Part shown: piece by piece, positions 26,293-47,613 of the stretch
Layout: every line of letters begins with the position of its first letter
How positions within the stretch are numbered: the stretch's first letter is position 1
From: Ochrobactrum chromiisoli
GTDB taxonomy: Bacteria > Pseudomonadota > Alphaproteobacteria > Rhizobiales > Rhizobiaceae
Assembly: GCF_026241335.1 (NCBI RefSeq)
Contig: NZ_JAPHAV010000001.1
Span: 620,001-684,000, forward strand
DNA length: 64,000 bases
Direction: 5' to 3'
Position numbers and translations under genes: made by a program
Notes under the pieces: model-generated
What the model saw: the letters and a program-made list of their open reading frames with translations, nothing else
Told to the model about the DNA's origin: nothing
Database searches by the model: none

Positions 26293-26328
26293 TAAAAAAC
26301 CGGCCTCGCGAACACGCAAAAGGCCGGT
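26293..26328 (-). terminator. Expression-platform terminator of the metZ leader
   Basis: On the minus strand an 8-bp stem (ACCGGCCT/AGGCCGGT at 26299-26306 and 26321-26328) is followed by a T run (26294-26298). It lies between the SAM-II aptamer and the metZ start. Confidence 0.8.
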
Positions 26329-26339
26329 AACGAACCGCG

Positions 26340-26398
26340 GCCTTATTTTAGCGAATTCTTTAACGTGGCTGCAAGCCGGCCGGCCAAATCACCACGGA
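26340..26398 (-). ncRNA. SAM-II riboswitch in the metZ leader
   Basis: The minus strand reads CCGTGGTGATTTGGCC, then GGCTTGCAGCCACGTTAAA, then GCTAAA. These are the hallmark conserved blocks of the SAM-II (metA-type) aptamer found before methionine genes in alphaproteobacteria: a stem plus pseudoknot that binds S-adenosylmethionine. The location 104 bases upstream of metZ, with a terminator between, supports transcriptional control. Confidence 0.93.
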
Positions 26399-26598
26399 AC
26401 ACTTTTTCCTTATGCCTCTTGAGCGGGGCCGTCAATGCTTGAAGAAGAGCGAAGAATAGAAATTGGCGCGTAGCGATCCTGTTGTTGCAATTTAAAGCTG
26501 GGGAAACTGGCTAAAAAAGCGTTAAAAAGCTGGTCTTGATTATTATGAGCGGTCAATGGTCATAGACCGATTTTAAGTAATTCACGGAGTTGAGTGGC

Positions 26599-44128: not shown

Positions 44129-44416
44129 ATGGTGTGGGATCTTGTCTCGTGAGTCACAATTTACAGATTTAAACAAAATGCGGCTGTTGTAACCCTCTAA
44201 AACACCCCTCACGGTTTTACTCTACATTTAGCAATCACTTTTTTCGTACGCTCTAACGAACTGCGTTACTGTTCGCCATGTTTACGCGCGCTGTTCCAGC
44301 ATTGCAGCCATGCAGTTTATGCACTTCTCAAAACGATTAAAAAGACGGAAGCTTCAGAGTGGGAGGAAGGTAAAAAGCCCAGCACTCAAAGGTGCTGAAG
44401 ATAAGGGGATACCACC

Positions 44417-44566
44417 ATGAACCACCTTCGTACCCAGTTCTCCCGTTGGATGCAGTACCGCGAAAATCTGCGCGAGTTAAGCGGTTGCAGTGATCGCGAA
44501 CTTTCCGATCTTGGCTTGTCGCGCAGCGATATTCGTCGCGTTGCCCATGAGGCAGCTTTCGCCTGA
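44417..44566 (+). CDS. DUF1127-domain small protein
   Basis: 49 residues: MNHLRTQFSRWMQYRENLRE then LSGCSDRELSDLGLSRSDIR and a short tail. The YRENLREL...LSDRELxDLGLSRxDI pattern is DUF1127 (YjiS-like). Such small basic proteins are common in alphaproteobacteria, sometimes controlling phosphate, RNA turnover or carbon metabolism. AAGGGG lies 10 bases before the ATG. The stop sits inside a perfect hairpin. Confidence 0.85.
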   Translation: MNHLRTQFSRWMQYRENLRELSGCSDRELSDLGLSRSDIRRVAHEAAFA

Positions 44567-44952: not shown

Positions 44953-45837
44953 CTACTCCGCAGTATTCTCGCCTCTGCAAAGCGCAAGCCATGCCCTCGC
45001 GGCATGGGACAGGAACGCACCTTTTCGCCAGATGAGCGCCATGTCCCAGTTCAGTTTCGCATCCTTGATGTGATGAATGCGAACGCCGGGATGTTTGCGC
45101 TGTTCGGCAATCATTTGCGGCAGAAAGCCTATCCCCATGCCTGCTGCGACCAGCTCGACGATGAAGTCGATCTGGCTTGATCTGACAGCGACATGAGGAA
45201 ACAGTCCGCGCTGATTGAATGCTTCAAGAATGATCTGATTGAGCGCAAAGCCGCTTTCAAAAAGAATGAAGGGCAGACTGGCAATATCGGACAAGGGAAT
45301 ACCGCCATCATCGACGAAGCTGTGGCTGGCTGGAAGCAGGGCAACAACGGGCTCACAACGAACGGCCTGCCACTCGAAACTTTCTTCGACGGGCAAAAGG
45401 GAAGCGGCCAGTTCGACGTCACCTGCCAGAAGAACTTCTTCCAGTCGTTTGCTGCCATGTTCGACAAGCTGAATGTCGATATCGGGATAAAGCTTGGTGA
45501 AGGCTGCAAAGACGGGGGCAAAAAGCACGCTGGAGCCGATGGGTGGCAGGCCAAGGCGCAGGAGTCCGCGCTTGAGGCCGCGCAATTCTTCAAGCTCGCT
45601 CAGCATGTCGTCTTTTTCAGTCAGCATTGCAACTGCGCGCCGATAGACGATTTCCCCGGCGCTTGTCAGGCGCGGTGGGCTGACCTCACGGTCAAGAAGG
45701 GTGAGGCCAAGCTCATCTTCGAGCTGCCGCACCGTCTTGCTGACGGTTGATTGAGTGGCGTTGATGGTGCGGGCCGCTGCCGAAAAGCCGCCCTGCCGCA
45801 CCACTTCCACGAAAGCTTGAAAGCCGCGTAAGTTCAT
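44953..45837 (-). CDS. LysR-family regulator (CidR-like)
   Basis: 294 residues. N-terminal winged helix-turn-helix FQAFVEVVRQGGFSAAARTI, NATQSTVSKTVRQLEDELGL and a LysR substrate-binding domain. Divergent from a CidA/LrgB pair with about 100 bp between, the arrangement of CidR, which activates cidAB in response to acetate or overflow metabolism in other bacteria. Two ATTC-N7-GAAT sites lie in the gap. Confidence 0.85.
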   Translation of the reverse strand: MNLRGFQAFVEVVRQGGFSAAARTINATQSTVSKTVRQLEDELGLTLLDREVSPPRLTSAGEIVYRRAVAMLTEKDDMLSELEELRGLKRGLLRLGLPPIGSSVLFAPVFAAFTKLYPDIDIQLVEHGSKRLEEVLLAGDVELAASLLPVEESFEWQAVRCEPVVALLPASHSFVDDGGIPLSDIASLPFILFESGFALNQIILEAFNQRGLFPHVAVRSSQIDFIVELVAAGMGIGFLPQMIAEQRKHPGVRIHHIKDAKLNWDMALIWRKGAFLSHAARAWLALCRGENTAE

Positions 45838-45842
45838 GAGCC

Positions 45843-45888
45843 ATTCTATTATGGAATAGCTGCAATGAAATCAATTCATTTCTGGAAT
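45843..45888. promoter_or_regulatory. Tandem LysR-type operator between LysR and cidA
   Basis: Two copies of ATTC-N7-GAAT, at 45843-45857 and 45874-45888, spaced 31 bp centre to centre (about three helical turns), as expected for a LysR tetramer binding two boxes. A TATAGT at 45903-45908 could be the cidA -10. Confidence 0.6.
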
Positions 45889-45940
45889 GGCGATACTGCG
45901 CCTATAGTGAATTCACAAATACCTGCATTGGAACATCATC

Positions 45941-46348
45941 ATGAGCGCCCACAACCTGACAATCCGTTTTCGCTATGCGCTGCACAACAGCCGTCTTATG
46001 CAGATTGCGACATTGTTCGGCTTCTGGCTGGCAGGGGAAGCTTTTGTTCGCTTGGTCGGCTTGCCGCTGCCGGGTGGCATTGTTGGCATGGTACTGGTTC
46101 TGGCCCTGCTCTTAAGCGGACGCATCAGCCTGTTCAGCATGAAGCGCGGTGCGGAATGGTTTCTGGCAGAAATGCTGCTGTTTTTCGTGCCGGCGGTTCT
46201 GGCTATTCTCGAACATCAGGAACTGCTCGGCATGCTGGGCGTGAAAATCATGGCTGTTATTCTGGTCGGAACGCTGACTGTTATGACTGTGACCGCGCTG
46301 ACTGTCGATATGTGTTATCGGCTGAGTGTACGCTATGCCGCTAAGTAA
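45941..46348 (+). CDS. cidA: CidA/LrgA-family holin-like protein
   Basis: 135 residues with four hydrophobic spans (LMQIATLFGFWLAGEAFVRL; GGIVGMVLVLALLLSG; ready FFVPAVLAILEHQELLG; IMAVILVGTLTVMTVTALTV). The CidA/LrgA group forms holin-like membrane proteins implicated in programmed lysis or metabolite export. It overlaps the LrgB-type gene by 14 bp; both are controlled presumably by the divergent LysR gene. Confidence 0.85.
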   Translation: MSAHNLTIRFRYALHNSRLMQIATLFGFWLAGEAFVRLVGLPLPGGIVGMVLVLALLLSGRISLFSMKRGAEWFLAEMLLFFVPAVLAILEHQELLGMLGVKIMAVILVGTLTVMTVTALTVDMCYRLSVRYAAK

Positions 46349-47030
46349 CCCCTATGTGGCAACGCTGTTCTGGTCTGCCGCTACAATCCTTCTCTACCTC
46401 GCAGCAAAACGCGTCTATCGTCGCTTTCCGATGTGGTGGCTGACGCCGCTTGCTGTCACGCCGTTATTGCTGATGGCCCTGCTCATAGGGTTCAATGAAA
46501 ACTACAGAGGTTATTTCAGCGCGACCCATTGGCTTGTGGCGCTTCTTGGCCCCGCAACCGTGGCTTTTGCGATTCCGATCTATCAGCAGCGTGCAACCAT
46601 TCGACGATATTGGCCGGTCTTGCTGGTTGGCGTCGTGGTCGGCAGTTCGTCTGCGATGCTCTCCGCCTGGGGGCTGGCGCATCTTCTTGGTCTTAGCGAC
46701 GCTATCAGCTTGAGCTTGATGCCGCGCTCTATGAGTACGCCTTTTGCGATGACGGTTTCCGGCGATATTGGCGGAATGCCTGATCTGACGGCCATTTTCG
46801 TCGTGCTGACCGGTGTATTTGGTGCTGCAATGGGTGAAGTGATGCTCAACTGGCTGCCGCTTCGCTCTGCTTTGGCGCGCGGCGCATTGTTCGGTATGGG
46901 GGCGCATGGCGCTGGCGTTGCCAAGGCGCATCAGATTGGCAGCGAAGAAGGGTCAATTGCTGGTCTTGTGATGGTGCTGGTTGGTCTGGTCAATGTTCTG
47001 GCTGCGCCACTGATCGCGCATCTTCTCTGA
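46335..47030 (+). CDS. lrgB: LrgB/CidB-family membrane protein
   Basis: 231 residues, about seven spans. Characteristic: ALLGPATVAFAIPIYQQR, SLMPRSMSTPFAM, DIGGMPDLTAIFVVLTGVFGA, GAHGAGVAKAHQIGSEEG. LrgB-type partners of CidA/LrgA regulate murein hydrolase activity or transport of overflow carboxylates. ATG 46335 lies inside the cidA end, so translation is coupled. Followed by a clear terminator. Confidence 0.87.
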   Translation: MPLSNPYVATLFWSAATILLYLAAKRVYRRFPMWWLTPLAVTPLLLMALLIGFNENYRGYFSATHWLVALLGPATVAFAIPIYQQRATIRRYWPVLLVGVVVGSSSAMLSAWGLAHLLGLSDAISLSLMPRSMSTPFAMTVSGDIGGMPDLTAIFVVLTGVFGAAMGEVMLNWLPLRSALARGALFGMGAHGAGVAKAHQIGSEEGSIAGLVMVLVGLVNVLAAPLIAHLL

Positions 47031-47060
47031 AACACTGATTTTGCAGCATATTTTTCTCAG

Positions 47061-47088
47061 CCTGCTCATTCTGTGAGCAGGTTTTTTA
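47061..47088 (+). terminator. Terminator after the cidA-lrgB unit
   Basis: CCTGCTCA / TGAGCAGG hairpin followed by six Ts. Confidence 0.88.
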
Positions 47089-47186
47089 TATTTAGGATTC
47101 TGCATTAAACTTAAGCATCGGCGTATTTGCATAACTGATATGCGTTATTGGTCGTTGTTGAATAAAGAGGCGCTTGGTAAATATTG

Positions 47187-47300
47187 GTCATCGGGTTCAC
47201 TCCTCCTCCCAGAGCCCGATGACGAATACGGCACTCCTCCTCCCAGCCGTATTCAAGATCAGGCCGCGCATCCTCCTCCCGCGCGGCCTTTTTCTTTTTT
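47187..47300 (+). ncRNA. Cuckoo-type small RNA with three anti-Shine-Dalgarno hairpins
   Basis: Three consecutive hairpins each display CCTCCTCCC in the loop. Stem 1 GTCATCGGG/CCCGATGAC (47187-47223), stem 2 GAATACGGC/GCCGTATTC (47224-47254), stem 3 GGCCGCGC/GCGCGGCC (47262-47288), the last followed by TTTTTCTTTTTT as terminator. This is the layout of alphaproteobacterial cuckoo RNAs (e.g. Rhodobacter CcsR1-4), whose loops can pair with Shine-Dalgarno sequences. The 5' end is unknown, probably near 47130-47185. No protein is encoded. The gap from 47300 to 47613 otherwise holds nothing recognised. Confidence 0.85.
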
Positions 47301-47613
47301 AAAGCTTCCCTTAATCACTCTGATCTGTTGGCCGTGCGTTGCTCGCACCACCCATGGGCAATTGCGTTCAACAATACGTTCGCGGTGACAGTGTTCTCGC
47401 GCAAAAGCTTTGAAAAAAGACGAAAGGCAGCTGTGGAAATAGCTGTCCTTTATGGGCCTTGTGTAACTGAGATGCCGCAGCGGCATAATCTTTCCACAGG
47501 TGTCGACAATTAGGGCTTGGCATATCTCTTCCGGTAAAGAATATATTACCCGCGCCCAAACTAAAATGTTGATCGGGCGGTTTGGGGATCAAGTCTTGTC
47601 GGGGAGTTGGGTT

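What the first reader, a model, noticed from the sequence alone, without database searches (positions are those of the whole stretch)
47187..47300. Triple-hairpin anti-Shine-Dalgarno RNA (cuckoo type)
Three tandem hairpins with perfect 8- or 9-bp stems each expose CCTCCTCCC, and the last one is also the terminator. This could titrate or block ribosome sites of many mRNAs at once. Stem sequences differ while loops are constant, indicating selection on the loop and on pairing.
Basis: partly seen in the sequence, partly recalled or inferred. Interest (0 to 1): 0.75.

Follow-up and report, generated by a model that had tools for sequence, protein, structure and literature searches.

The report
Triple-hairpin anti-Shine-Dalgarno small RNA (ar14)
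The window carries a copy of a known alphaproteobacterial small RNA that shows the same ribosome-site-blocking sequence on three hairpin loops, and a recognisable switch site upstream hints at which regulator turns it on.

Summary
Three tandem hairpins (47187-47289, + strand) each expose CCTCCTCCC, the only exact copies in the window; the RNA folds far better than shuffles (z -9.0) and a T-run follows the last hairpin. It belongs to Rfam RF02344, ar14 (86.2 bits, cut-off 58.8), the published "cuckoo"-type family of NfeR1 of Sinorhizobium meliloti. The host is Brucella/Ochrobactrum-type; its genome has five ar14 matches, four over the cut-off. This copy is found in 34 of 35 genomes of the genus, own included. 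Likely mechanism: the redundant loops pair with purine-rich ribosome-binding sites and block translation, as published for NfeR1; transcription and targets here are inferred. Added result: a perfect match to the published VtlR/LsrB box (GCAT-N3-TG-N3-T) lies 54 bases before the RNA, kept in 29 of 30 and 22 of 23 ortholog loci read. Upstream of 14 related loci in this genome (5 ar14, 3 AbcR, 6 DUF1127), 7 have it. A known kind, with a predicted VtlR link that I saw in no paper found for this genus, though a conserved promoter element including Brucella is already in print.

The parts
47129..47141 (+). Predicted VtlR/LsrB (LysR-type) binding box GCATAACTGATAT = GCAT-N3-TG-N3-T, at -54 from the RNA start; lies in conserved block 47124-47160
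   Evidence: Perfect match to the consensus quoted in PMC7486931 (passage) and PMC8844928 (passage); kept in 29 of 30 (own included; 30 of 34 matching genomes were read) and 22 of 23 ortholog loci, sets that overlap in species; block 47124-47160 has 23 of 37 invariant columns over 24 sequences, its neighbours 3 of 33 and 2 of 22. Binding not tested.
47183..47301 (+). ar14 small RNA gene, about 112-119 nt (5' end taken from the Rfam match, not measured)
   Evidence: RF02344 86.2 bits over 47183-47294, cut-off 58.8
47187..47223 (+). Hairpin 1, 12-bp stem (one G-U; outer three pairs poorly kept in relatives), loop ACTCCTCCTCCCA
   Evidence: inner stem shows an A-U to G-C change on both sides in 6 of 15 distinct orthologs; 88.3% of H1 cells paired
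47224..47254 (+). Hairpin 2, 9-bp stem, loop ACTCCTCCTCCCA
   Evidence: 8 of 9 pairs never vary in 15 distinct orthologs
47261..47301 (+). Hairpin 3, 9-bp GC-rich stem, loop ATCCTCCTCCC, then T-rich tail: likely intrinsic terminator
   Evidence: 9 of 9 pairs never vary. The terminator scan does not list it; its stated loop limit is 8 bases and this loop has 11.
47059..47083 (+). Terminator-like hairpin of the upstream lrgAB genes, before the RNA gene
44417..44566 (+). Small DUF1127 protein gene (49 aa) with its own VtlR-type box (reverse orientation) at about 44301-44313: predicted co-regulated gene

Best explanation
It is an ar14-family trans-acting small RNA, of the same kind as NfeR1 of S. 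meliloti. It is made from its own promoter between lrgB and a DUF900 hydrolase gene and ends at the third hairpin. Three rigid hairpins present the same C-rich loop, which pairs with unusually long, purine-rich Shine-Dalgarno stretches (GGAGGAG type) of a limited set of mRNAs and blocks ribosome binding; three copies give redundancy. Shown here: structure, family membership, conservation, conserved upstream box. Shown in print for NfeR1: loop-dependent silencing and activation by LsrB. Inferred for this copy: transcription, activation by the LsrB orthologue VtlR, and the targets.
For: RF02344 at 86.2 bits; the S. meliloti pSymA stretch of the known member SmelA075 scores 89.9 bits with the same model. 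Fold z -9.0. Loops invariant or nearly so over 24 sequences (13 of 13, 12 of 13, 10 of 11 columns). Paralog stems differ widely yet pair: arms swapped between classes pair 48-59% (own arms pair 100% by construction). Changes on both sides in H1: 11 cells (2 of 500 shuffles as high), covariation score 0.068 against 0.049 shuffled (1 of 500). Box at -54 in this copy and in paralog L004; AbcR at -61 and -63. A LysR-family gene next to a pyridine-nucleotide-disulphide oxidoreductase gene (trxB by my reading) and near an AbcR gene in the same genome fits the vtlR neighbourhood described for B. melitensis in PMC12595884 (passage). NfeR1 loops silence ntrB and two transporter mRNAs, and LsrB binds and activates its promoter (PMC10746234, passages and one section). 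Of 20 genome sites inspected with 7 or more complementary bases, two encode solute-binding proteins, the class of the two earlier confirmed NfeR1 targets.
Against: No transcript data. No sigma-70-like promoter found by the scan, and the CTTAGAC-N17-CTATAT signature reported for the family is not evident by eye. No window gene has 7 or more complementary bases near its start. The ntrB start region of this genome offers only 6 bases by my reading, so the best-studied target may not be shared. Two covariation measures do not exceed shuffles (pairs with double change 265 of 500, further pair types 500 of 500). Transporter enrichment was not tested against a background.
Confidence: 0.82

Rival explanations
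1. It acts mainly as a decoy or sponge for something other than mRNA start sites: an RNA-binding protein (for example a DUF1127 protein such as CcaF1, which takes part in maturing the Rhodobacter RNAs encoded behind it) or purine-rich RNA in general.
For: Three identical loops suit a sponge; two of the host's other ar14 copies lie directly downstream of DUF1127 genes and a further DUF1127 gene with the box lies 2.6 kb away in the window. CcaF1's role is cited in PMC12501420 (passages).
Against: For NfeR1 the silencing needs the loops and goes through mRNA start sites (PMC10746234); the small DUF1127 proteins of Agrobacterium act through protein contacts (PMC12501420, title and passages).
Confidence: 0.08
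2. It mimics the 3' end of 16S rRNA and globally lowers initiation at strong Shine-Dalgarno sites (general titration) rather than acting on a chosen target set.
For: The loop contains the anti-Shine-Dalgarno core CCTCC; GGAGGAG-N5-9-ATG is more frequent than the reversed pattern in the genome, 73 to 8, as any Shine-Dalgarno-like pattern would be.
Against: 0 of 49 crude window genes with 7 or more complementary bases; the full 9-base complement occurs at 28 places, 16 of them being ar14 or AbcR genes read on the other strand, against 18 for the reversed control.
Confidence: 0.08
3. It is only a read-through terminator array or 3' UTR piece of lrgAB, without trans function.
For: Starts about 150 bases downstream of lrgB on the same strand.
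Against: A separate terminator-like hairpin follows lrgB; that stretch is poorly conserved (0 of 59 columns invariant) while box and RNA are kept; of 25 lrgB loci without three exact loops, 24 have 2.6-4 kb of downstream sequence to look at and 1 (L051) none.
Confidence: 0.02

Closest known systems
ar14 family (Rfam RF02344); NfeR1/Smr14C2 and SmelA075 of Sinorhizobium meliloti
   Same: Three hairpins, CCUCCUCCC in each loop, variable stems, several copies per genome (six NfeR1 copies reported in S. meliloti, five matches here), LsrB-type box upstream
   Different: Box is GCAT-N3-TG-N3-T at -54; in S. meliloti TGCA-N6-GCAT at -72 to -60. The ntrB site here is only 6 bases. An NtrC site is said to be not evident in Brucella homologues (PMC10746234).
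CcsR1-4 of Rhodobacter sphaeroides (Rfam RF02791)
   Same: CCUCCUCCC loops; the host's other copies L002 and L003 sit downstream of a DUF1127 gene, as CcsR1-4 sit downstream of ccaF1
   Different: Below the CcsR1 cut-off (27.1 of 65.3 bits); three hairpins, not two (RS0680a has two, PMC3927594 section 2.7); the window copy is free-standing
AbcR1/AbcR2 (ar15, RF02345)
   Same: Anti-Shine-Dalgarno motif, predicted shared targets, VtlR/LsrB box upstream of two of three copies here
   Different: Two distinct anti-Shine-Dalgarno motifs in S. meliloti AbcR1/2 (one exact CCTCCTCCC per copy here); Hfq-binding in S. meliloti, NfeR1 not (PMC8844928, passages)

Membership tests
ar14 (RF02344) | Score at or above the Rfam gathering threshold | tested here: met
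   86.2 against 58.8 bits, full model 1-123
ar14 (RF02344) | Three hairpins with CCUCCUCCC unpaired in every loop | tested here: met
ar14 (RF02344) | Stems highly variable among members, pairing kept | tested here: met
   Between paralogs; among orthologs of this locus mainly H1 varies
ar14 (RF02344) | Own RpoD promoter CTTAGAC-N17-CTATAT with conserved upstream element | tested here: inconclusive
   Upstream element conserved; no sigma-70 hexamers found
ar14 (RF02344) | Loop-dependent silencing of mRNAs | not testable with these tools
   Seen in print for NfeR1
cuckoo RNA family (2-4 hairpins, unconserved helices, conserved loop motif; definition in PMC4504443, passage) | 2-4 hairpins with the conserved loop motif | tested here: met
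   the thermodynamic matcher itself was not run
CcsR1 (RF02791) | Score at or above the Rfam gathering threshold | tested here: not met
   27.1 against 65.3 bits; best in the genome 30 bits
CcsR1 (RF02791) | Located directly behind a DUF1127 gene | tested here: not met
   Nearest DUF1127 gene in the window ends at 44566, and lrgAB lie between; met by paralogs L002 and L003
VtlR/LsrB regulon | Box GCAT-N3-TG-N3-T upstream | tested here: met
VtlR/LsrB regulon | Binding by and dependence on VtlR | not testable with these tools
   Needs experiment or deposited RNA-seq

The most novel reading that the evidence does not exclude
In the Brucella/Ochrobactrum group VtlR does not just switch on one small RNA and three small proteins, as the passages read here state; it switches on a bank of anti-Shine-Dalgarno RNAs: two free-standing ar14 RNAs (window copy and L004), two ar14 RNAs carried behind DUF1127 genes (L002, L003) and two AbcR RNAs, together 14 exact CCTCCTCCC loops under one regulator.
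Probability: 0.5. Interest if true: 0.5.

Novelty: new member of a known kind. Interest (0 to 1): 0.3.

Why it matters
The RNA itself is a further copy of a family already in Rfam and in print. What could matter is the regulation: the VtlR regulon in this genus has been described as AbcR2 plus three DUF1127 proteins (PMC12595884, passages). The boxes found here predict that it also contains four ar14 RNAs, two of them behind DUF1127 genes. That would bring the Brucella group in line with S. meliloti, where LsrB activates NfeR1, and it could be checked in deposited RNA-seq.

Tried and rejected
CcsR1 membership: rejected, below cut-off. sX13, SorX, SorY matches: all below their cut-offs, judged C-rich resemblance or chance. 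Protein-coding reading of the 82-aa ORF: rejected, ortholog indels. Broad sponge over window genes: no support (gene calls crude, start sites uncertain). ntrB as a conserved target: inconclusive, 6 bases only. Covariation was not counted on the paralog alignment A1 because hairpin 3 is misaligned there; A2 had wrongly cut rows and was replaced by A3, which holds the window and the 23 named-genome loci. Class-wide sample: 17 of 289 genomes (own included) match at E 0.001 and 1 of 289, the own genome, passes the cut-off, with strict filters; in the nearer sample 45 of 60 match and 37 of 60 pass (own included).

Papers. I saw nothing linking VtlR to ar14 in Brucella in the listings and (20 of 144 listed), nor in the passages opened from PMC12595884, PMC7486931, PMC9751625 (none of r14, CCUCC, Shine-Dalgarno, NfeR1, Rfam occur) and PMC11975290. 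Against novelty: PMC10746234 says that an earlier alignment of NfeR1 promoters, Brucella included, showed a conserved 29-nt element; that may be the block described here. The founding papers (del Val 2012, Reinkensmeier and Giegerich 2015, Robledo 2017) were not read; the first two are not held, the third was not looked up and is known here only through citing text. The names trxB and VtlR for genes of this genome are my assignments.

Full report
What is there. Window 47187-47289 on the + strand holds three tandem hairpins with 12-, 9- and 9-bp stems, each showing CCTCCTCCC in its loop, and a T-rich run follows the third. The motif occurs three times in the 64 kb, all here; none of 100 shuffles gives three. 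The fold is far below shuffles (z -9.0).

What it is. Rfam's ar14 model RF02344 matches 47183-47294 with 86.2 bits, cut-off 58.8. As a yardstick the pSymA stretch that carries S. meliloti SmelA075 scores 89.9 bits (position from PMC7143759, passage). The Rhodobacter CcsR1 model does not reach its cut-off. The own genome has five matches, four over the cut-off: the window copy, L004, and L002 and L003, which lie directly behind DUF1127 genes; L005 is a weak fifth (33 bits). L002 has a fourth loop just upstream, like the four-hairpin SmelA099 group described in PMC3927594 (section 2.7).

Host and conservation. The lrgB gene next to the RNA is 86-97% identical in protein to that of the 23 named-genome loci (of 48 fetched) that have three exact loops just downstream; these are labelled Brucella, Ochrobactrum or, in three cases, Rhizobiales bacterium. 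Of the other 25, 24 do not have three loops within the 2.6-4 kb seen downstream, among them L026 (Mesorhizobium), L027 (Paramesorhizobium) and L030, labelled Brucella endophytica; L051 ends at the gene and cannot tell. By DNA, 34 of 35 genomes of the genus (own included) keep the locus, 31 of 31 of those with good quality. Over 24 sequences the loops keep 13 of 13, 12 of 13 and 10 of 11 columns and the stretch downstream 3 of 89. H2 and H3 stems hardly vary; H1 does. On 15 distinct rows and 30 pairs, 3 pairs show a change on both sides, 2 of them in the poorly kept outer stem of H1; 11 cells with such a change (2 of 500 shuffles as high) and a covariation score of 0.068 (1 of 500), but the number of such pairs (265 of 500) and of further pair types (500 of 500) do not stand out. 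Between paralog classes stems differ widely and arms swapped between classes pair only 48-59% (the comparison is lopsided because arms were defined by pairing).

The switch site. The block 47124-47160 is the most conserved part outside the RNA in the stretch aligned (23 of 37 columns invariant). It holds GCATAACTGATAT, a perfect match to the VtlR/LsrB consensus GCAT-N3-TG-N3-T given for B. abortus and A. tumefaciens (PMC7486931 and PMC8844928, passages). The consensus turns up 18 times in the window on both strands, so about 0.06 is expected in 220 bp (rate). In 220 bp upstream, 7 of 14 loci examined have it: ar14 2 of 5 (both at -54), AbcR 2 of 3 (-61, -63), DUF1127 3 of 6 (reverse orientation, -102 to -125); two of those three DUF1127 genes are the ones followed by ar14. 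Without it: ar14 L002, L003 and L005 in their own 220 bp, AbcR L091, DUF1127 L125, L126, L127. In 33 ar14 loci (four of the own genome and 29 best matches of other genomes) the box is present in 5 of 5 window-type, 7 of 8 L004-type (three in reverse orientation; L071 lacks it), 18 of 19 DUF1127-linked (reverse orientation, within 420 bp; L056 lacks it) and 0 of 1 from another genus (L072); the classes are my sorting of that output. At the window locus it is kept in 29 of 30 loci from the genus search (30 of the 34 matching genomes were read; L120 departs) and 22 of 23 named loci (L013 departs), sets that overlap in species. A LysR-family gene (Pfam) lies between a pyridine-nucleotide-disulphide oxidoreductase gene, which I read as trxB, and the AbcR copy L090, the neighbourhood given for vtlR in PMC12595884 (passage); its identity as VtlR rests on that.

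How it works. For NfeR1 the three loops act redundantly at mRNA start sites, LsrB activates and NtrC represses (PMC10746234, passages and one section). The anatomy here fits the same mechanism. The likely targets are mRNAs with GGAGGAG-type sites: 73 matches in the genome with an ATG 5-9 bases on, against 8 for the reversed pattern (two of the 73 are ar14 genes read on the other strand and one site is listed twice). I looked at 20 of the 73, 16 with 8 or more complementary bases and 4 with 7; 14 gave an open frame that I scanned, all 14 with a Pfam match, two of them solute-binding proteins (L130, L139), and 6 gave only short frames. No background was taken, so this is consistent but not evidence of enrichment. 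Against wide action: no window gene among 49 crude calls has 7 complementary bases, fewer than the shuffled mean of 1.25.

Verdict. A genuine, conserved and ordinary member of a known family. The VtlR box is a specific prediction that I did not see in the papers found for this genus, although a conserved promoter element in Brucella homologues has been reported.

Noticed in passing
window 44301-44566: DUF1127 small-protein gene with a VtlR-type box in reverse orientation.
   Followed up: partly
window 26325-26405 (-): SAM_alpha riboswitch, 79.8 bits.
   Followed up: no
window 44953-47030: LysR-type regulator gene divergent from an lrgA-lrgB pair.
   Followed up: no
G001:C2, G005:C2, G008:C4, G009:C2, G017:C71, G028:C44: In at least six genomes of the genus (list of matches cut short) two ar14 copies lie about 0.6 kb apart in opposite orientation; unexplained arrangement.
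   Followed up: no
L002 about 1501-1640 (own genome C11:1252524-1252663): Four-loop ar14 copy behind a DUF1127 gene, like the CcaF1-CcsR arrangement of Rhodobacter.
   Followed up: partly
L003 770-859 (-): Glycine riboswitch near the DUF1127-linked ar14 copy; an AbcR copy (L091) lies about 5 kb away.
   Followed up: no
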